From contig JADGBE010000003.1 of assembly GCA_015231615.1 (NCBI GenBank), positions 1 through 64,000 of the forward strand: DNA of 64,000 nucleotides, given 5' to 3'. Source of the DNA: Desulfamplus sp. Lineage in GTDB: Bacteria > Desulfobacterota > Desulfobacteria > Desulfobacterales > Desulfobacteraceae. Position 1 is the stretch's first letter. Each line of letters begins with the position of its first letter. The translations under genes and the position numbers were made by a program. Shown here in pieces: positions 28,734 to 58,295 of the stretch. Below the pieces are notes generated by a model. The model saw nothing but the letters and a program-made list of their open reading frames with translations, was not told the DNA's origin and did not search any database.

Positions 28734-28980
28734 CTGAAACCAGAATGAATACATAATTGCTGTTAAAGCCCTCTGTATTCTGAGGTAGATTCACATCGGG
28801 GTTGTTATCAAAGGTTTTTAAATTCTGCACACTAAGAGTGTCCTCTTTGTTTAATACAGAATCACAGTTGCATTGAACTTGTGAAGCATTCAATGGTGTG
28901 TATGTATCTCTCTCTAATAACTTCTGCATAGTTTCCTAAGCCCCCTAATCAACTCTTACGTTGAGCCTCACGACTCAAGC

Positions 28981-29000
28981 CCCTTGACTTGTCAAGGGGT
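28981..29000. repeat. Perfect palindrome CCCCTTGAC-TT-GTCAAGGGG
   Basis: 9-bp perfect arms, same architecture as 28714-28733. Confidence 0.6.
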
Positions 29001-29336
29001 AGTTGACTTTTAGTCATTAAAAACTAATAGTGATAAATTAGTCAGTCTTTTTACTTTGTCAAGTCTTGTTCATCAAAGTAGCTACAAGTTATAAAAGTTT
29101 TCTTTCTAAAAATTGCATCTTTTCATTAAACAATAATAACAAGTAATTATTAATACTTAATAACCTTTGTTCAAGCACGCCAAAAAACAATGATAAAATA
29201 GACAGAGTTTATTTCTTGTCAAGTATTGGTTAATGAAAATTTTTAATTTCTTTTGTTAAATTGTTTCAGAGCTATATTGAGTCTCATAGCTTTTGATTTT
29301 GATTATTTTTAATAACTTTATCCCAAATACCTTATT

Positions 29337-48564: not shown

Positions 48565-49947
48565 TCATATATCGCAATTAACAGAAATTCCTTCTTCTTT
48601 GTAAGTTTGGACTCTTTTTATCGCAGATGCTTTTAGAACTCCTATATTAACATCAATATAGTCATAAATTACAGCCATTGATTTGTCTTGGGCGGGACGA
48701 AGGATTCTACCAATATATTGAATAAGTCTGCCTTTAAACTTTATTGGTGTTACTAAGAAAAGTGTAGAAAGTTCAGGAAGATCAAACCCCTCTCCAATCA
48801 ATTGTCCTGTTGCAATCAAAGTAGTGATCTGCCCATTATTAAGCTCGTGGAGAATTGAATCTCGTTCGTTTTTTGGTGTAAGTCCTGTCAAAATTCTTGA
48901 TCGCATTTTATATTTAAGCTCAAGAATGGTTTGAATAAGATGTGCGTGTTCACGACGATCTGTAAGCACTAACTTTATACCACTACTATCTTCTGATGCA
49001 ATATCACCGCATATAAGCAGGTTTCTTTGCTGATCAATAGAGATTGCCTTTATAACTTTTGTGTAGTCGGCACTTGCATCAAGCAAAGTGTTAAACTCTG
49101 TAAACCTACAAATGACCTCTGCTTTACTTATATCGCCAGTTTTAACAAGAGGTGCTTTTTCAATGTTATACCTCTGTTCCCCAAGAGTTAGACAGATTAA
49201 TTTACTAAGACCATCTCTTCTGTATGCTGTAGCCGTAAGCCCAAGTCTATACTTTGCTTTAAATCCAGAAACTGCCTCTGTAAAAGTTTTTGATGGGCAT
49301 TTATGGCACTCATCAACCACTATATGCCCAAATAGAGAATCTAATTTAGCAAGATGTTTTCTAACACTTTGATATAAACCAACTGTAATTTTATCCCCTA
49401 TGTTATATTTACCAGCACCAATAACACCTATATCTTTTTCTTCAATATTTAAAAACTCATTAATTCTATCTAACCATTGCTTCATAAGCTCGATACTATG
49501 CACAACAACTAATGAGGGTTGTTTTCGTTGAGCTATTACAAAAAGTGCAACCACAGTCTTTCCACTACCAGTTACAGCTAAAAGCACACCATGAGAATGT
49601 TTGATAATGGCATCAGCTGCACTCGTTTGAAATTTTTTAAGTTGTCCATTAAAAGCAATATTAACAGGTGGTAATTCAAGTCTATTATCAATAACATTAA
49701 TATCTAACTTGTCATGGAATTTTTTGCAGATTCCGTATGCTTCATCTGCAAATCCCCTTGGGCATACCAATGAGTCGTAGTTCTCTTCATAGAATAGCAA
49801 CTCTTTAGGAGTCTTGCCTGTCCACTTGCCAAGTTTTGATAATGTGTAATATTCTGGATTTTGGCATCTGAGTATCAATTTAATCTCATTTGCACATTTT
49901 TCATCTAAATATTTCAAAATCAAATTGTTACTTAAAATAAACTCCAC
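48565..49947 (-). CDS. DEAD/DEAH-box superfamily 2 helicase (XPB/SSL2-like)
   Basis: LLAVTGSGKTVVALFVI (motif I), VVDECHKCPS (DECH), LGLTATAYRRDG, YIGRILRPAQDKSMAVIYDYID. Confidence 0.9.
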   Translation of the reverse strand: MEFILSNNLILKYLDEKCANEIKLILRCQNPEYYTLSKLGKWTGKTPKELLFYEENYDSLVCPRGFADEAYGICKKFHDKLDINVIDNRLELPPVNIAFNGQLKKFQTSAADAIIKHSHGVLLAVTGSGKTVVALFVIAQRKQPSLVVVHSIELMKQWLDRINEFLNIEEKDIGVIGAGKYNIGDKITVGLYQSVRKHLAKLDSLFGHIVVDECHKCPSKTFTEAVSGFKAKYRLGLTATAYRRDGLSKLICLTLGEQRYNIEKAPLVKTGDISKAEVICRFTEFNTLLDASADYTKVIKAISIDQQRNLLICGDIASEDSSGIKLVLTDRREHAHLIQTILELKYKMRSRILTGLTPKNERDSILHELNNGQITTLIATGQLIGEGFDLPELSTLFLVTPIKFKGRLIQYIGRILRPAQDKSMAVIYDYIDVNIGVLKASAIKRVQTYKEEGISVNCDI

Positions 49948-50181
49948 AAATATCCTTTATCTATCTATTGCAACATATTACCACTGATATTATTGCCACT
50001 ACTTGATGTTTTTTGATTTTATCAGCATTGTGCCATATTGCAACATAAAAGGTTGCGATTTTTTCAAGTTGATAACCACACATTGTCATGGTAGATTTAA
50101 AGAATACGTAGATTAAATTATTTGCCATAATGCAATTAATTTTAAATTAGAATTCTTCAACACATAAAAAGGAGATTTTTT

Positions 50182-52086
50182 ATGCAAAAAAGATTTTTTG
50201 CCATAGTTTTGTTCTGGCTGATTACCTCTTTGGCTTATGTATATGTTTTTCCAATAATATCTCTATTGCCTATTCAAGGTTTACAATATGAGGTAGAAGC
50301 ATCGTCTTTGTACTATATCCTTGATGGTTCAGGTTCAATGTGGGGAAGAGTAGATGGGCAGATGAAAATTCAAGCTGCACGAGATACTATGAAAAATCTT
50401 ATCTCTAAAATGCCTGACGAAATTCTATACAGCCTTACCGTATATGGTAACCTAAAAAAAGGAGACTGTTCTGACATTACAGAAATTATTCCTTTTGGAA
50501 AAATTGACCACGCCAAAGCAATAGAGCTAATTAGAACGATAAATCCCAAAGGCAAAACACCCATAGCCGCAACAATTGAAAAAACAATTAAAAACCTTAA
50601 AGCTCAAAATAGCCATGATAAAACGGAAGTAGAAACAACAACAATTATTCTTATTAGCGATGGTATTGAAACCTGCGGGGGTTCTCCTTGCGAAATTACA
50701 ACCCAACTCAAATCATCAGGTATAAACTTCGTTATACATGTAGTTGGATTTGATGTTGATAAAGAGGCATCAGAACAGCTTGCCTGCATTGCAAATGCTG
50801 GAGGAGGAAGATATTTTTCTACAAAAAACGCTGATGAGCTACTATCAATATTATCAACAGTGCAGAGAAGCGTTATTGATAAAAAATCAATTAGTATCAC
50901 AGAAAAAGTTGAACAGAATCCCATAAATAACAAAGAAGCAATACTAAGCTCTAAAACCCCTAAAGTTGAAAACATAGTAACAACTCCTGTTGAACAAAAA
51001 ATTATAGAGAGATCAAAATCTGTAAGAATAAAAGCAAAAGGACCGGGTAAAATAACATTCAAACACGATTCTTGGCTTAAAAAGCCATATTCATGGAAAC
51101 TTATTGATCCAGAAACTGGAGAGGAGAAAGCAAAGTTTTCCACACTTGAAACAACCATAATTGCTCCAGGCAGCTATCAGGTTGTTTGGGATCAATATGA
51201 ACACGAAAGTTCTGATGTTCCTCTTACCGAAGTTATTAGGGTAGATTCTGGCAAAACCGTTGAAATACCACTTATGACCGCTATACAATTAAATATTCCA
51301 TCATGGGTAGATAAACCACAATATTGGGGACTTCGAGATCCTCAGACACTTGAGAATATTGTAATGTTTACAAAATTTGAGCCACTCTTAGTTCCAGCAG
51401 GCGAGTATGACATTATTTGGAGACAAGGAGAGCATTCTTCAAAGGAGGTGGCAATCCAAAGAGTCAATATTGTGCCAGACATAATTAATAATATTACTAT
51501 ATCAACTTCAATAAATACTATACCAGCAGAGTGGGTTGATAAAAAAATTCACTATTGGGGTCTTAAGCGTTCTGAAATAAAAGATTCAACAAATTTGGGG
51601 TTTATTCCAACTAATTCTAATAATGAAGATTTTGTTGCATGGTTCAGTGATAAATTTGCTCCACAACTTGTTCCTTCTGGAAAATATCATTTGATATACG
51701 ATCTTTCTGAACATGGAAGCTCTGACTCTATTCTTGGTGAAATTGAAGTAGTAGAAGGAAAAATGAATGAATTTAAAGTTAATACGGGAGTAAAACTTAT
51801 TCCACCCCAAGGTATGAAACCTCCTTATCTTGTTGAATTTATTCAACTCAATAGAGATAAGATAGATGATAATAAAGAGGGGAAAACGATAGAGGAAGAT
51901 AACCTTAATAACATAGATGAGGATAAATTAAGTAAAGTTATAATTAGTGGAAGTTTTGGACCTATAGCTCTAAAGCCCGGAATATATAAAATAAACTATC
52001 GCCAAGAAGAGCATGGAGCATCAACGATGACTATTGTAGATGAGTTAGAACTTGAGGCTGGAAATCTTATAGAAATTGAACTTTAA
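50182..52086 (+). CDS. Secreted von Willebrand factor A domain protein with four C-terminal repeat domains
   Basis: N-terminal signal/TM; YYILDGSGSMWGRVDG (MIDAS DxSxS); repeated ...LxPGxYxxxYxQxEHxS... units. Confidence 0.88.
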   Translation: MQKRFFAIVLFWLITSLAYVYVFPIISLLPIQGLQYEVEASSLYYILDGSGSMWGRVDGQMKIQAARDTMKNLISKMPDEILYSLTVYGNLKKGDCSDITEIIPFGKIDHAKAIELIRTINPKGKTPIAATIEKTIKNLKAQNSHDKTEVETTTIILISDGIETCGGSPCEITTQLKSSGINFVIHVVGFDVDKEASEQLACIANAGGGRYFSTKNADELLSILSTVQRSVIDKKSISITEKVEQNPINNKEAILSSKTPKVENIVTTPVEQKIIERSKSVRIKAKGPGKITFKHDSWLKKPYSWKLIDPETGEEKAKFSTLETTIIAPGSYQVVWDQYEHESSDVPLTEVIRVDSGKTVEIPLMTAIQLNIPSWVDKPQYWGLRDPQTLENIVMFTKFEPLLVPAGEYDIIWRQGEHSSKEVAIQRVNIVPDIINNITISTSINTIPAEWVDKKIHYWGLKRSEIKDSTNLGFIPTNSNNEDFVAWFSDKFAPQLVPSGKYHLIYDLSEHGSSDSILGEIEVVEGKMNEFKVNTGVKLIPPQGMKPPYLVEFIQLNRDKIDDNKEGKTIEEDNLNNIDEDKLSKVIISGSFGPIALKPGIYKINYRQEEHGASTMTIVDELELEAGNLIEIEL

Positions 52087-52113
52087 CATTTATATAGTCA
52101 AAAAAGCATCATT

Positions 52114-53715
52114 ATGAGATTAAAACTTGGCATTGCAAAAAAAATGTCGTTCTTCTGTCTTTTTTTTATCTTGATTCTTTACGGAACTGTCTTGGATCTG
52201 CTTATAAATATCCAAAATATGTCTGGAATGTCTGAACAGATTGTGAGCATTAACAATGAAATAGGCTCTCTATCAAAAGTTATGCTCGACAGCATAATCA
52301 GCATGGATGTTAATGATAAAAAATATAGACTTCTTAAAAAAGATATATACCTTACATATTTTGATACAGCCAGAAACGATTATCTCAATGCTCTTGACAA
52401 GATATTTAGATTGAATTCTCCTGAATATAGCCTTCCAGAGTCATGGCATAGGATACAAAAAAAATTTGAACCTAATCTTTTGCCATATATTCAACCCCGC
52501 TCAACTAAAACTCAAGATGTTGTCAAAGTCTCCTCTGATAATAATAACTCTTCTGAAAATGAACCTAAAATATCTTCTGTTAGTAGCAACTCCTCTGAGA
52601 GCAAACTTAAAGTCTCTTCTGATAATAACAACGCTTCTGATAAGAGTGATAAAACGCCCTCATGGATTTCTGAGCCACTACTTGAGGAGTGGATAAAAGA
52701 GATTTCAAATGGAAGGCAGGAGAATGAAAGACAAATTGAACAGCTATTAATAAATATTAATGAAAGAAGTCGCCAGAGTGTAAAAAAAGGGTTAATTGGT
52801 TTTGGGGTATCCATTGTTGTTGGTATTCTTGGAGTGTGGTTTATCTCTCAATCCATGTTAAAACCTCTAAATAAACTCAAAAATGGATTAAAAGGGATTG
52901 CACTTGATAACTATGATCATGTGATAGAGATAAAATCTAATGATGAATTTGGCGAGCTTGCATCTGTATTTAATGATATGAGCAGGCAACTTAAAGAGAG
53001 TGAAAGCATAAGATCAGATTTTATTGCAATATTAAGCCATGAGATAAGAACTCCGCTTGCATCAATACGAGAATCTGTCAACATGATTATTGAAGATGTA
53101 TTTGGTCCAATCAATGACAAGCAGAGAAAATTTCTTGAGATTGCAAGCTCTGAGATAAGTAGAATCACAACTCTTCTAAATCACCTATTAAATGTCTCAA
53201 TGCTTAAATCTGATTCAGAAAAGATAAAGCCAGAGCCTCTTGATCCAAATCAATTGATAAGTGATGCTGCAATGGGACTAATTGGAACTGCTAACTCTAA
53301 CAATGTGGAGTTAAGAGTGCATGAACTTCAAGAGATACCAATACCTTTGGTTATGGGAATCAGGAATGAGATTTTGCAGGTTTTGCTGAATATTATTGGC
53401 AATGCCATTAAATTTTCGTATAAAAATAGTTTTGTCGATATTTCTCTGATTAAAGGGACAAATGGGAGTGAGTTGATATTTAAGGTATCTGATCAAGGTC
53501 CTGGAATTCCTGAAGAGGAACACTCTCTTGTTTTCAAAAAATATTATAGAAGTAAAGAGGTAAGAACACACATGGACGGTGTAGGGCTTGGATTGAATAT
53601 ATCTAAAAAGATAATACAAGCTCACGGTGGAACAATTTACATGGAAAATAACAGTGATAAAGGATGTTCTTTCTTTTTCACTCTTCCAACAGAAACAGGA
53701 AATAAGAAAAGTTAA
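52114..53715 (+). CDS. Membrane sensor histidine kinase, GlrK/QseE-like
   Basis: TM-periplasmic-TM, HAMP, DFIAILSHEIRTPLASIRESVNMI H-box, NIIGNAIKFS N-box, GPGIPEEE, GVGLGLNISKKI. Confidence 0.93.
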   Translation: MRLKLGIAKKMSFFCLFFILILYGTVLDLLINIQNMSGMSEQIVSINNEIGSLSKVMLDSIISMDVNDKKYRLLKKDIYLTYFDTARNDYLNALDKIFRLNSPEYSLPESWHRIQKKFEPNLLPYIQPRSTKTQDVVKVSSDNNNSSENEPKISSVSSNSSESKLKVSSDNNNASDKSDKTPSWISEPLLEEWIKEISNGRQENERQIEQLLININERSRQSVKKGLIGFGVSIVVGILGVWFISQSMLKPLNKLKNGLKGIALDNYDHVIEIKSNDEFGELASVFNDMSRQLKESESIRSDFIAILSHEIRTPLASIRESVNMIIEDVFGPINDKQRKFLEIASSEISRITTLLNHLLNVSMLKSDSEKIKPEPLDPNQLISDAAMGLIGTANSNNVELRVHELQEIPIPLVMGIRNEILQVLLNIIGNAIKFSYKNSFVDISLIKGTNGSELIFKVSDQGPGIPEEEHSLVFKKYYRSKEVRTHMDGVGLGLNISKKIIQAHGGTIYMENNSDKGCSFFFTLPTETGNKKS

Positions 53716-53719
53716 ATTG

Positions 53720-54496
53720 ATGGAACCTAAATTAAACAACTATTGTATGTTAAACAAGTATTCTACTTTATATCAAATTTTTGTGCTTTTATCCGTAATC
53801 ATATCCTTAGCAGTTACTTTACAAAGTTGTACTGTGCTAAAATCAATTGATAGAAAATTTCATTCTGTTAAACAGACGCTTGAATCAGGTGAAAGGGCTT
53901 TTATAAACGGCAATTATCAATTGGCAGGGTCGATTTTTCGTCAGGCAATAAGTGAGAGCAAAAATCCATGGGATAAAAATAGAGCTATTTATAATCTTGC
54001 CTGTGTAAAGTTTATAGTAGCAGAAAACGATTCTCAAATTATTGATGCAATGAAAATCTTTATGCAATGGAAACCATCTAAAGATATACCAATGTATTAT
54101 GAAAATCCTCACCTTATTATACAGGCATTGCTTCAACAGCATGATCTTTTAAAAGATAAAGAGTCTGAGGAGTTTAAAGAGTTCAACATAATCAATGATA
54201 TGCACGATATTCAGGAGATTGATTCTATCGTTAAAGAGACAAATCTTATGAATACACGGCTTGATAGGCTCTTAAGAGAACAAGATGGAAAGATAAAGAC
54301 ATTGAACGCTATCGTTAAAAAACAGAATGAAAAGATTAAACTCTTAAATGCTATTTTCAAAAAAGAGTCTAAAGCTAAAGAAGATATGGCAACCAAAAAA
54401 AGAGAGATGGAAAAGACAATAAAGACCCTTAAACATCAAATAGCCGAGCTTGAGCGAATTGACCAAAAACTTCAGAACAAAAGGCAAACTGAATGA
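53720..54496 (+). CDS. Predicted lipoprotein with TPR-like/helical region and C-terminal coiled coil, QseG-like position
   Basis: Hydrophobic signal ending LAVTLQSC; coiled-coil TLKHQIAELERIDQKLQNKRQTE; ATG 53720 just after the kinase stop (track start 53627 is inside the kinase). Confidence 0.75.
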   Translation: MEPKLNNYCMLNKYSTLYQIFVLLSVIISLAVTLQSCTVLKSIDRKFHSVKQTLESGERAFINGNYQLAGSIFRQAISESKNPWDKNRAIYNLACVKFIVAENDSQIIDAMKIFMQWKPSKDIPMYYENPHLIIQALLQQHDLLKDKESEEFKEFNIINDMHDIQEIDSIVKETNLMNTRLDRLLREQDGKIKTLNAIVKKQNEKIKLLNAIFKKESKAKEDMATKKREMEKTIKTLKHQIAELERIDQKLQNKRQTE

Positions 54497-54571
54497 GCAG
54501 AAAACAATTCTGTGAAGAGAATGAACACCTAATGAACATAATAAAAGCCAATTGAACATAAGGAAAATCGA

Positions 54572-56116
54572 ATGAAAGATGCTACTTGCATATTAATCGT
54601 AGATGATGATTCAAATATCCTTGAAGTTCTTGACGCAAGGCTTACTGCATCAGGTTTCAATGTATTTAAGGCAGCAGATGCCCAGACAGCAATGCAAATA
54701 TTAAAAAGAGAGTCTGTTGATCTTCTTATTTCAGATATGAAGATGCCAGTTACAAGTGGACTTGATCTTTTTTTAGAGATACAAAAAACTCTACCCGAGC
54801 TTCCTGTCATATTTTTAACTGCTTATGGAACAATACCTGATGCTGTTAATGCTATCAAACATGGTGCTGTTGATTATATTTCAAAACCATTTGACGGCAG
54901 AGATTTGATAAAAAAAATCCGACAAATACTTGAAATTCGACAACAATCTAAACAACCCAATATAAACATTGAATCCAATCAACTTAACGAAAGGGTTTTA
55001 AGTAAAACAGCTTCAATAAAGACAGATTCAGCCAAATCAACCATAAGTTCAAACTCAGGCAAAGATAATTTAAGCTCTAATGCAAGTAAAGGTATAGAGC
55101 CAAATCACCATATTATATTTGAAGATGAGTTCTACTGGGGAAAAACCCCTGCCATGCAGGAACTCTACAGTATGATAAAAAAAGTTGCAGCCACAAATGT
55201 CAATGTGATGATTCTTGGGGAGAGCGGGGTTGGTAAAGAGTGGATAGCAAGATCAATTTATCGTAATAGCTCAAGAAGAGATCAACCTTATGTGGTTGTT
55301 GATTGCGGTTCAACCCCTGATGGTATTTTAGAGAGCGAGCTTTTTGGTCATCTTAAAGGCTCTTTTACAAGTGCTGTAAAGGATAAAAAAGGGCTTATAG
55401 AGACGGCTGACAAAGGAACTCTTTTTCTTGATGAGATTGGGAATATATCACATGAGATGCAGTGCAGGTTATTGAGATTTTTGGAAGATAAAACTATACG
55501 TCAAGTTGGCTCTGTGCATGAAAAGATAGTTGATTGTAGAATCATATCAGCAACTAATTCAGATTTAGCCGCAGATATTGAAAGTGGCACATTCCGTCAA
55601 GACCTCTATTATCGCTTAAAGGTTGTAACTCTTAATGTTCCACCCCTTAGAGATAGAAAGGCAGAAATTTCAGATTTTGCAAAGTTTTTTGTAGATAGAT
55701 ACACCAAAGAGCATAACCTTCCTAAAGTAACTTTTTCCAAAGAGACAATTGAGTTAATGGAGTCCCACGATTGGCCCGGAAATATAAGAGAGTTAAGAAA
55801 TGCTCTTGAGGCTGGTATTGTTCTTTGTAAAAATGATATTATGCAGCCTTGGGATCTTCAATTGGGCAATAACCAGAAATTAATAAAAAACTCTAAACCT
55901 GATATTAAACCTTTTGATCCAAACAGTGAAAACCGCTCTTTTAATGATGGTGAGGCGGGATTTTCTATTGAAGAGAGCGAAAAACAGACCATAATCAGAG
56001 CATTGAAGGAGTCTAAGGGTGTTCAAAAAAGAGCCGCTGAACTTCTTGATATTAGCAGACGGGCAATTAATTATAAAATAAAGAAATATGATATTCAGCC
56101 AAGGGATTATAAATAG
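54572..56116 (+). CDS. Response regulator, receiver + sigma54-type AAA+ + Fis HTH (GlrR/QseF-like)
   Basis: ILIVDDDSNILEVL receiver; DLLISDMKMP; GESGVGKEWIARSIY; GTLFLDEIGNI; C-terminal KRAAELLDISRRAINYKIKKYDI. Confidence 0.94.
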   Translation: MKDATCILIVDDDSNILEVLDARLTASGFNVFKAADAQTAMQILKRESVDLLISDMKMPVTSGLDLFLEIQKTLPELPVIFLTAYGTIPDAVNAIKHGAVDYISKPFDGRDLIKKIRQILEIRQQSKQPNINIESNQLNERVLSKTASIKTDSAKSTISSNSGKDNLSSNASKGIEPNHHIIFEDEFYWGKTPAMQELYSMIKKVAATNVNVMILGESGVGKEWIARSIYRNSSRRDQPYVVVDCGSTPDGILESELFGHLKGSFTSAVKDKKGLIETADKGTLFLDEIGNISHEMQCRLLRFLEDKTIRQVGSVHEKIVDCRIISATNSDLAADIESGTFRQDLYYRLKVVTLNVPPLRDRKAEISDFAKFFVDRYTKEHNLPKVTFSKETIELMESHDWPGNIRELRNALEAGIVLCKNDIMQPWDLQLGNNQKLIKNSKPDIKPFDPNSENRSFNDGEAGFSIEESEKQTIIRALKESKGVQKRAAELLDISRRAINYKIKKYDIQPRDYK

Positions 56117-56148: not shown

Positions 56149-57156
56149 TTGAAAAATAAAATTATTTTAGGAGATTGTTTATCTATACTTAAAACTATAG
56201 AAAATAATACGTTTGATTTAGTAATTACGTCTCCTCCATACTTTCAACAGCGAGACTATGGAAACGGTAATTTAGGCATAGGTAATGAAAAAACAGAAGA
56301 AGAATATTTGGAAAATCTTATTAGTGTATTTAGAGAGTGTGTTCGCGTTACTAATAGTGATGGAGTGATTGTTTTCAATATAGGAGATAAGTATATTAAT
56401 GGCAGACTTTCTCTTATTCCTTATAAATTTGCTATTCGTGCTATAGAAGATAAAAAGTCTTTTTTGGTAAACCAGCTAACATGGTCAAAACTTAACCCAA
56501 CTCCTCGTCAAGACCAACGTAAACTTATTCAATCTACAGAGCCATTTTTCATATTTGCCAAATCAAAAGATTACTATTTTGATTTGAATAATTATTTAAA
56601 ACATTTAGACCATATTAATAAAAATATCAGAAATAGCCCTTCTGAAAAGTTAGGAAAAAAATACTTTGAGCTTATAAACACTTCTGATTTATCTGAAGAA
56701 CAAAAGATCAATGCTCGTAAATCTTTAAATGAAGCTATTTTGTCTGTACATAAGGGAGAAATTGAAAGTTTTAGAATGAAAATAAATGGGATACATAAAT
56801 TGGCATACGGTGGACAAGATGGAGGCAGAAATAATCAAATTAAAAACAATGGCTTTACTGTTATAAAAATTTCAGGGAATAAAATGAAAAAAGATATTAT
56901 TGAAAGCCCTGTTGAAATTACAAGAGACAATAATCACCCTGCTGTTTATCCCATCTATATTATTCAAGAGCTTATTAAGCTGTTAAGCAAGGAAGATTAT
57001 TTTATCCTTGATCCTTTTTGTGGAAGCGGAACAACCTGTATAGCGGCTAATAATTTAAAAAGAAACTATTCAGGAATTGAAATTAACCCTGAATATGTAG
57101 AATTAGCTAATGAAAGAATCAAAAAAAGCTCTTGTAATCAGGAATTTTTTATATGA
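56149..57156 (+). CDS. DNA methyltransferase, amino-MTase with N-terminal TSPPY and C-terminal FxGxG motif (N4-cytosine or N6-adenine)
   Basis: LVITSPPYFQQRDYG; ILDPFCGSGTTCIAANNLKRNYSGIEINPEYVELA; TTG start. Confidence 0.93.
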   Translation: MKNKIILGDCLSILKTIENNTFDLVITSPPYFQQRDYGNGNLGIGNEKTEEEYLENLISVFRECVRVTNSDGVIVFNIGDKYINGRLSLIPYKFAIRAIEDKKSFLVNQLTWSKLNPTPRQDQRKLIQSTEPFFIFAKSKDYYFDLNNYLKHLDHINKNIRNSPSEKLGKKYFELINTSDLSEEQKINARKSLNEAILSVHKGEIESFRMKINGIHKLAYGGQDGGRNNQIKNNGFTVIKISGNKMKKDIIESPVEITRDNNHPAVYPIYIIQELIKLLSKEDYFILDPFCGSGTTCIAANNLKRNYSGIEINPEYVELANERIKKSSCNQEFFI

Positions 57157-58295
57157 AAGAACCATTTGAAATATTAGAAGAACACTATCAAAAAGCAATT
57201 AAGATAGCTTGCAATAAAAATTTTGATATAATTCCTGATGAAGTAAAAGAGATTATCAACCCATTAATTCTAAAGATTGAAAGTGATAAATCTTTAGTTC
57301 AGGTTATTGTAACAAGTCTGTTAAAAAAAATAATATCTCCTGAACAAGATATTCGTTTTCACATGGCAAAATTTTCAAACGGCTATTCAGCCAGAGGTCT
57401 TGATACTAAAGTAACTACGCCATTTTTTAAAAAATATTTTCCTAAATATGCAAATAAAGAGACAGCTTTTTTGACTAAAGCAACAAGAGCAGAAGTTATT
57501 TGGACTTTAGATGAAGGAGAAAAACTACCTTTAAGAAGCAGGCAATTAGTAAAACCTTTTTTAGAATTAATTGATAAAATTCAAAATAATACAGTTAATC
57601 TTAAAAACTGCCTAATTTATACCTTAGCAAAATTATATTTTCTTTCACAATCTGATCAAATAATTTTTGATAACACTATTGAACTTGCTGATTTTTCAGA
57701 TGTTATCAACATAAATACTGTAATACAAATGTTGAGTAAACATTTTGATAGCCGCCTTAGCTCAAGACTTCCTGTTATTGCAATTTTTTCAGTTTATAAA
57801 CAACTCTTCAAAACTGTAAAACGGTTTGACAATAAAGTTTTACGCCCTTTAAATGTTCACACTTCTTCTGATAAGCATGGCTACGGTGATGTGGAAATAT
57901 GGAATATAAATGAGACTCCTTTTGAAATGGTTGAAGTAAAACATAAAATTCCTATTGATAGAAATATGATTTTTGATCTTATCAAAAAGTCTGAAAACAC
58001 TACAATTCAAAGATATTATATTCTAACTACCTATGAAAATTGTTTTATGAACTCTGATGAGGAAGAATATATAAACAAGTTTATATTAAAAATAAAGAAA
58101 GAGAGAAACTTAGAAATTATTGCTAACGGTATAATTTACAGTTTAAAATATTATCTACGTTTTATAGAAGATTATCATGAGTTTTTAAAAACATATACTG
58201 ACGAATTGATAGCAGATGCTAAAAAATCAACTGAAGTCAAAGAGTTTCACCTAAAGAATTGGCAGAAAATTTTGAAAAAGCATAGTAACTTATAG
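57153..58295 (+). CDS. Putative type II restriction endonuclease, PD-(D/E)XK type (possibly SacI-like family)
   Basis: 4-bp overlap with methyltransferase (ATGA); YGDVEIWNINETPFEMVEVKHK fits D-x(n)-E-x-K; SARGLDTKVTTPFFKKYFPK. Confidence 0.72.
   Translation: MKEPFEILEEHYQKAIKIACNKNFDIIPDEVKEIINPLILKIESDKSLVQVIVTSLLKKIISPEQDIRFHMAKFSNGYSARGLDTKVTTPFFKKYFPKYANKETAFLTKATRAEVIWTLDEGEKLPLRSRQLVKPFLELIDKIQNNTVNLKNCLIYTLAKLYFLSQSDQIIFDNTIELADFSDVININTVIQMLSKHFDSRLSSRLPVIAIFSVYKQLFKTVKRFDNKVLRPLNVHTSSDKHGYGDVEIWNINETPFEMVEVKHKIPIDRNMIFDLIKKSENTTIQRYYILTTYENCFMNSDEEEYINKFILKIKKERNLEIIANGIIYSLKYYLRFIEDYHEFLKTYTDELIADAKKSTEVKEFHLKNWQKILKKHSNL

What the first reader, a model, noticed from the sequence alone, without database searches (positions are those of the whole stretch)
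50182..56116. VWA protein joined to a QseE-QseG-QseF-like signalling operon
Seen: VWA protein, then 27 bp, histidine kinase, then 4 bp, lipoprotein with C-terminal coiled coil (LKHQIAELERIDQKLQNKRQ), then sigma54-type response regulator, all same strand and tight. Known: enterobacterial qseE-qseG-qseF (glrK-yfhG-glrR) encodes kinase, periplasmic-facing lipoprotein and regulator for envelope status. Inference: the secreted VWA protein with four extra domains may be an input module of the same pathway, a combination not part of the classical system.
Basis: partly seen in the sequence, partly recalled or inferred. Interest (0 to 1): 0.6.

Follow-up and report, generated by a model that had tools for sequence, protein, structure and literature searches.

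The report
VWA gene joined to QseEGF-like operon
In one small branch of the sulfate-reducing genus Desulfamplus, a gene for an exported von Willebrand A (VWA) protein was added to the front of an older three-gene envelope-signalling cassette, and one close relative has already lost it again, so it looks like an optional lineage-specific add-on rather than a core sensor part.

Summary
In detail: VWA gene (50182-52086), QseE-like kinase, lipoprotein and sigma54-type regulator lie on one strand, with gaps of 27, 4 and 75 bp and no terminator between VWA and kinase. The kinase-lipoprotein(-regulator) core is old: it recurs across this Desulfobacterota family without VWA. VWA precedes it in only 4 of 7 Desulfamplus-group genomes that show the junction, all in one well-supported clade. 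A fifth member of that clade carries a deletion scar: both flanks and the last 13 nt of the VWA ORF remain. VWA is under purifying selection (dN/dS 0.12-0.21), and in one species the left neighbour differs while VWA and kinase stay joined. Near-full-length VWA relatives elsewhere in the order (3 genomes) are not beside the cassette. So: conserved, probably co-transcribed, dispensable; 'input module' is possible but unproven. QseEGF membership is partial: the kinase sensor is distantly homologous to E. coli QseE, and the lipoprotein C-terminus resembles QseG's QseE-binding segment, but the QseG family, QseG fold, GlrR best-hit and GlmY tests fail. The regulator family replaces the second Gly of GAFTGA in 13/13 members. 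New variant of a known kind, moderate interest.

The parts
50182..52086 (+). Exported VWA protein, 634 aa: N-terminal hydrophobic helix (4-32), VWA domain (43-223), low-confidence linker (about 238-284), four beta-rich repeats with EH motif
52114..53715 (+). QseE-like sensor histidine kinase, 533 aa; two TM segments (about 3-34, 223-250), helical periplasmic sensor with Ser/Asn-rich insertion, HAMP-HisKA-HATPase
53720..54496 (+). QseG-like (by position and layout) lipoprotein, 258 aa: lipobox Cys37, TPR-like helical N-domain, about 108-residue C-terminal helix ending in QIxxLExIDxxxQxKR
54572..56116 (+). Sigma54-type (NtrC class) response regulator, 514 aa; GAFTGA motif is GSFTSA
52074..52086 (+). 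Last 13 nt of the VWA ORF, the part kept in the deletion scar of relative G005 together with the VWA-HK junction
   Evidence: 70 bp, 94% identity across the junction
50017..50050 (.). Conserved intergenic block TTTTATCARCATTGTGCCATATTGCAAC; travels with the divergent helicase gene, not with the VWA/HK operon (next to the helicase in G002 and G009, where the operon is not found or lies on another contig)
48565..49947 (-). Divergent ResIII/DEAD-type helicase; left neighbour of the locus in most relatives

Best explanation
A Desulfobacterota version of the kinase / lipoprotein / sigma54-type regulator three-component envelope sensor: the lipoprotein's long C-terminal helix reaches the kinase sensor and stimulates it (as QseG does to QseE), and the kinase phosphorylates the NtrC-class regulator. 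In the ancestor of one Desulfamplus clade a gene for an exported MIDAS-type VWA protein was added directly upstream and is probably co-transcribed. It most likely acts in the periplasm as an accessory, dispensable partner or modulator of the cassette, for example as a metal-dependent binding module for the lipoprotein's TPR-like domain or for an envelope ligand. Shown: gene order, conservation, gain/loss pattern, purifying selection, distant sensor homology, protein layout. Inferred: co-transcription, lipoprotein-kinase contact, VWA function.
For: The HK-lipoprotein pair recurs in G003, G005, G008, G016, G017, G018, G022 and G023 without VWA, followed by the RR in all but G016. VWA precedes HK in G000, G007, G004 and G009 with short junctions. 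The HK+RR tree places these four plus G005 in one clade (99/97) and needs two changes, read as one gain and one loss because all outgroups lack VWA. The G005 deletion scar joins the former VWA upstream region to HK. In G009 VWA and HK stay joined although the upstream neighbour differs. VWA dN/dS 0.12-0.21, HK 0.09-0.14. Sensor versus E. coli GlrK sensor: hhalign score 28.8, 100 shuffles max 18.95. E. coli GlrK's top hit among 72 matches in this genome is this HK. A PSSM of the lipoprotein C-terminus ranks QseG residues 194-209, within its known QseE-binding end, first of all QseG windows (interface from PMC12691602).
Against: Operon membership is positional only; there are no transcript data. 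Loss of VWA in G005 with a constrained cassette shows that it is not required. The C-terminal motif match is not significant against heptad-preserving shuffles (p = 0.105). GlrK's best hit leads the next by only 2 bits. No QseG sequence or fold match. QseE Arg70, essential for QseG binding in Salmonella, aligns with Val here.
Confidence: 0.45

Rival explanations
1. The VWA protein is an output or bystander: an envelope protein that shares a transcript with the sensor cassette without sending a signal to the kinase.
For: Gain and loss happen without visible change in kinase or lipoprotein: the sensor insertion and the long coiled coil also occur in VWA-less Desulfamplus. Near-full-length VWA relatives in G010, G011 and G389 sit away from the cassette; G010's lies beside alpha-2-macroglobulin and penicillin-binding-protein genes.
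Against: The VWA-HK junction is kept in four species, including one with a changed upstream neighbour.
Confidence: 0.4
2. The core is not a QseEGF relative but an independent kinase/lipoprotein/NtrC-class system that resembles it by convergence.
For: No PF13942 match over cut-off in 39 genomes; hhalign QseG probability 0.6%; Foldseek's top 50 are mostly TPR folds and hold no QseG; E. coli GlrR's 14 matches at E<=1e-60 in this genome do not include this RR; NCBIfam GlrR model 333 bits against a cut-off of 763.
Against: Sensor homology to GlrK beyond shuffles, same gene order, lipobox plus long C-terminal helix with a conserved end.
Confidence: 0.3
3. The VWA-HK adjacency is a chance neighbourhood in a few near-identical genomes.
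For: Only one clade has it.
Against: The VWA proteins of G004 and G009 are only 67-68% identical to that of the window, so the adjacency has outlived much sequence change.
Confidence: 0.1

Closest known systems
QseE-QseG-QseF (GlrK-QseG-GlrR) of Enterobacteriaceae
   Same: Gene order kinase-lipoprotein-NtrC-class regulator; lipoprotein with helical N-domain and long C-terminal helix; helical sensor with detectable homology to E. coli GlrK
   Different: Extra upstream VWA gene; lipoprotein is not PF13942 and has a TPR-like N-domain; RR is not GlrR by best hit and carries GSFTSA instead of GAFTGA; no GlmY match and no glnB/purL synteny; phylum Desulfobacterota, whereas PMC12691602 describes the cluster across Pseudomonadota
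Exported VWA-domain proteins (PF00092) with C-terminal beta domains
   Same: Export segment, MIDAS-type VWA domain, beta-rich C-terminal repeats
   Different: Four EH-motif repeats without a Pfam match; encoded directly upstream of a sensor kinase in one clade

Membership tests
QseEGF | Gene order kinase - lipoprotein - sigma54-type regulator, same strand | tested here: met
QseEGF | Middle gene encodes a lipoprotein (lipobox Cys) | tested here: met
   LQSC; Cys37 invariant in all 13 aligned sequences
QseEGF | Lipoprotein belongs to QseG family PF13942 / has the QseG fold | tested here: not met
QseEGF | Kinase sensor homologous to QseE | tested here: met
   hhalign 28.8 versus shuffled max 18.95; distant homology only
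QseEGF | QseG-QseE interface residues conserved (QseG L209, R219; QseE R70, R73) | tested here: inconclusive
   L209 and the acidic and basic positions are matched in kind (motif p = 0.105); QseE R73 aligns with Lys, R70 with Val
QseEGF | Regulator is GlrR/QseF (equivalog score or best hit) | tested here: not met
QseEGF | GlmY sRNA upstream | tested here: not met
   no GlmY match in the Rfam scan of the window
QseEGF | Lipoprotein activates kinase by direct contact | not testable with these tools
   needs a complex structure or experiment
sigma54 activator (bEBP) | Canonical GAFTGA sigma54-contact motif | tested here: not met
   GSFTSA/GSFTNA/GAFTHA/GSFTHA in 13/13; Ser or Asn at this position in NorR still activates (PMC2941729), so sigma54 use remains likely; the genome has RpoN

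The most novel reading that the evidence does not exclude
A four-component envelope sensor in which a metal-dependent VWA protein in the periplasm binds the TPR-like lipoprotein (or the kinase sensor) and gates its activation of the kinase.
Probability: 0.25. Interest if true: 0.55.

Novelty: new variant of a known kind. Interest (0 to 1): 0.35.

Why it matters
It indicates that the lipoprotein-driven three-component design extends, at least in layout and distantly in the kinase sensor, to Desulfobacterota. It also offers a natural experiment (close relatives with and without the VWA gene, one with a deletion scar) for asking how accessory parts are added to and lost from two-component systems.

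Tried and rejected
The conserved intergenic block upstream of VWA was first taken as a possible operon promoter; rejected because it travels with the divergent helicase. A sigma54 promoter near the operon: no TGGCAY-N5-TTGCW match within one mismatch there. A terminator-like stem at 50037-50059 lies before VWA, and its stem is not kept in G004, G003 or G008. A link between VWA presence and the kinase's Ser/Asn-rich insertion or the lipoprotein's long coiled coil: rejected, both also occur in VWA-less Desulfamplus. The first Pfam call failed from a wrong lipoprotein start.

Full report
What is there. The four ORFs are as described. The VWA protein (634 aa) has an N-terminal hydrophobic helix, a VWA domain with a MIDAS-type DGSGS, and four C-terminal repeats marked by P(x)G-x-Y-(3)-[WY]-(3)-EH; residues beyond the VWA domain match no Pfam family. 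AlphaFold2 gives a moderate model (mean pLDDT 71), and Foldseek matches are mostly to VWA domains, with a pilus adhesin first. Kinase, lipoprotein and regulator follow with gaps of 27, 4 and 75 bp. No terminator-like site separates VWA from the kinase, and promoter-like matches are at chance level.

Where it comes from. The VWA protein is 94% identical to one in a Desulfamplus sp. assembly; ten genomes of the genus, the window's own included, could be searched. I called ORFs in 20 related regions and compared them with the window. The kinase-lipoprotein pair is present in Desulfamplus and in G016, G017, G018, G022 and G023 of the same family, with the regulator next to it in all but G016; the more distant G038 has kinase and regulator only. 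The VWA gene is upstream of the kinase in G000, G007, G004 and G009, and absent there in G003, G005 and G008, whose contigs span the junction.

How it got there. A tree of kinase plus regulator groups G009, G004, G005, G000 and G007 (99/97) and needs two changes of VWA state; since all outgroups lack VWA, one gain and one loss is the simplest reading. The loss is visible: in G005 the former VWA upstream region (to window position 50151) is joined to the last 13 nt of the VWA ORF and the VWA-kinase junction. Kinase and regulator stay constrained between the window and G005 (dN/dS 0.13 and 0.09), and VWA is constrained where present (0.12-0.21). In G009 the locus has a different left neighbour, but VWA and kinase are still joined. 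In 390 genomes of the order only seven have a VWA match at E<=1e-100, and the three outside Desulfamplus are not next to the cassette; the contig of G389 is only 6.9 kb long.

Is the core QseEGF? The kinase sensor aligns with the E. coli GlrK sensor at a score (28.8) above all of 100 shuffles (max 18.95), and E. coli GlrK's best match among 72 in this genome is this kinase, though by only 2 bits. The lipoprotein has an invariant lipidation Cys and a conserved C-terminal motif, and a model with a helical N-domain and a 108-residue helix, the general layout described for QseG (PMC12691602). A PSSM of the motif picks QseG's QseE-binding segment as its best window, but heptad-preserving shuffles reach that score in 10.5% of trials. 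Against membership: no PF13942 match, no profile match, no QseG among the top 50 fold matches, regulator not GlrR, no GlmY. I therefore call it QseEGF-like, not QseEGF.

The regulator. All 13 cassette regulators examined have Ser, Asn or His at the second Gly of GAFTGA. In NorR, Ser and Asn there still allow activation, with altered control (PMC2941729), and the genome has RpoN, so sigma54 use remains likely but is not shown.

Conclusion. Conserved adjacency and constraint support a real, probably co-transcribed unit in one clade. Whether VWA signals to the kinase, is an output, or is a passenger cannot be decided from sequence.

Noticed in passing
window 28785-29007 (-): HEARO RNA (Rfam RF02033, 120.4 bits, E 2.5e-24); no ORF of 120 aa or more was listed between 27695 and 29337, so its usual partner ORF is not obvious.
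   Followed up: no
window 56149-58295: DNA methylase (N6_N4_Mtase, 4.6e-49) plus a 380-aa ORF of unknown family sit between the regulator and the next conserved gene in G000 and G007 but not in G005 or G009; looks like an inserted restriction-modification pair.
   Followed up: partly
window 54572-56116 and 12 relatives: The second Gly of GAFTGA is replaced (S, N or H) in all 13 cassette regulators; most other activators of this genome that could be read keep Gly there.
   Followed up: partly
L075:2205-10291 (G002): A shorter VWA relative lies 107 bp downstream of a TonB receptor / YfiR-like / CHASE8 hybrid kinase / second kinase-receiver gene set: another VWA gene beside a signalling locus.
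   Followed up: partly
window 52114-53715, 53720-54496: Desulfamplus kinases carry a Ser/Asn-rich sensor insertion and their lipoproteins a longer coiled coil than family relatives, irrespective of VWA.
   Followed up: partly
L063:6315-8395 (G016): Kinase and lipoprotein without an adjacent regulator.
   Followed up: no
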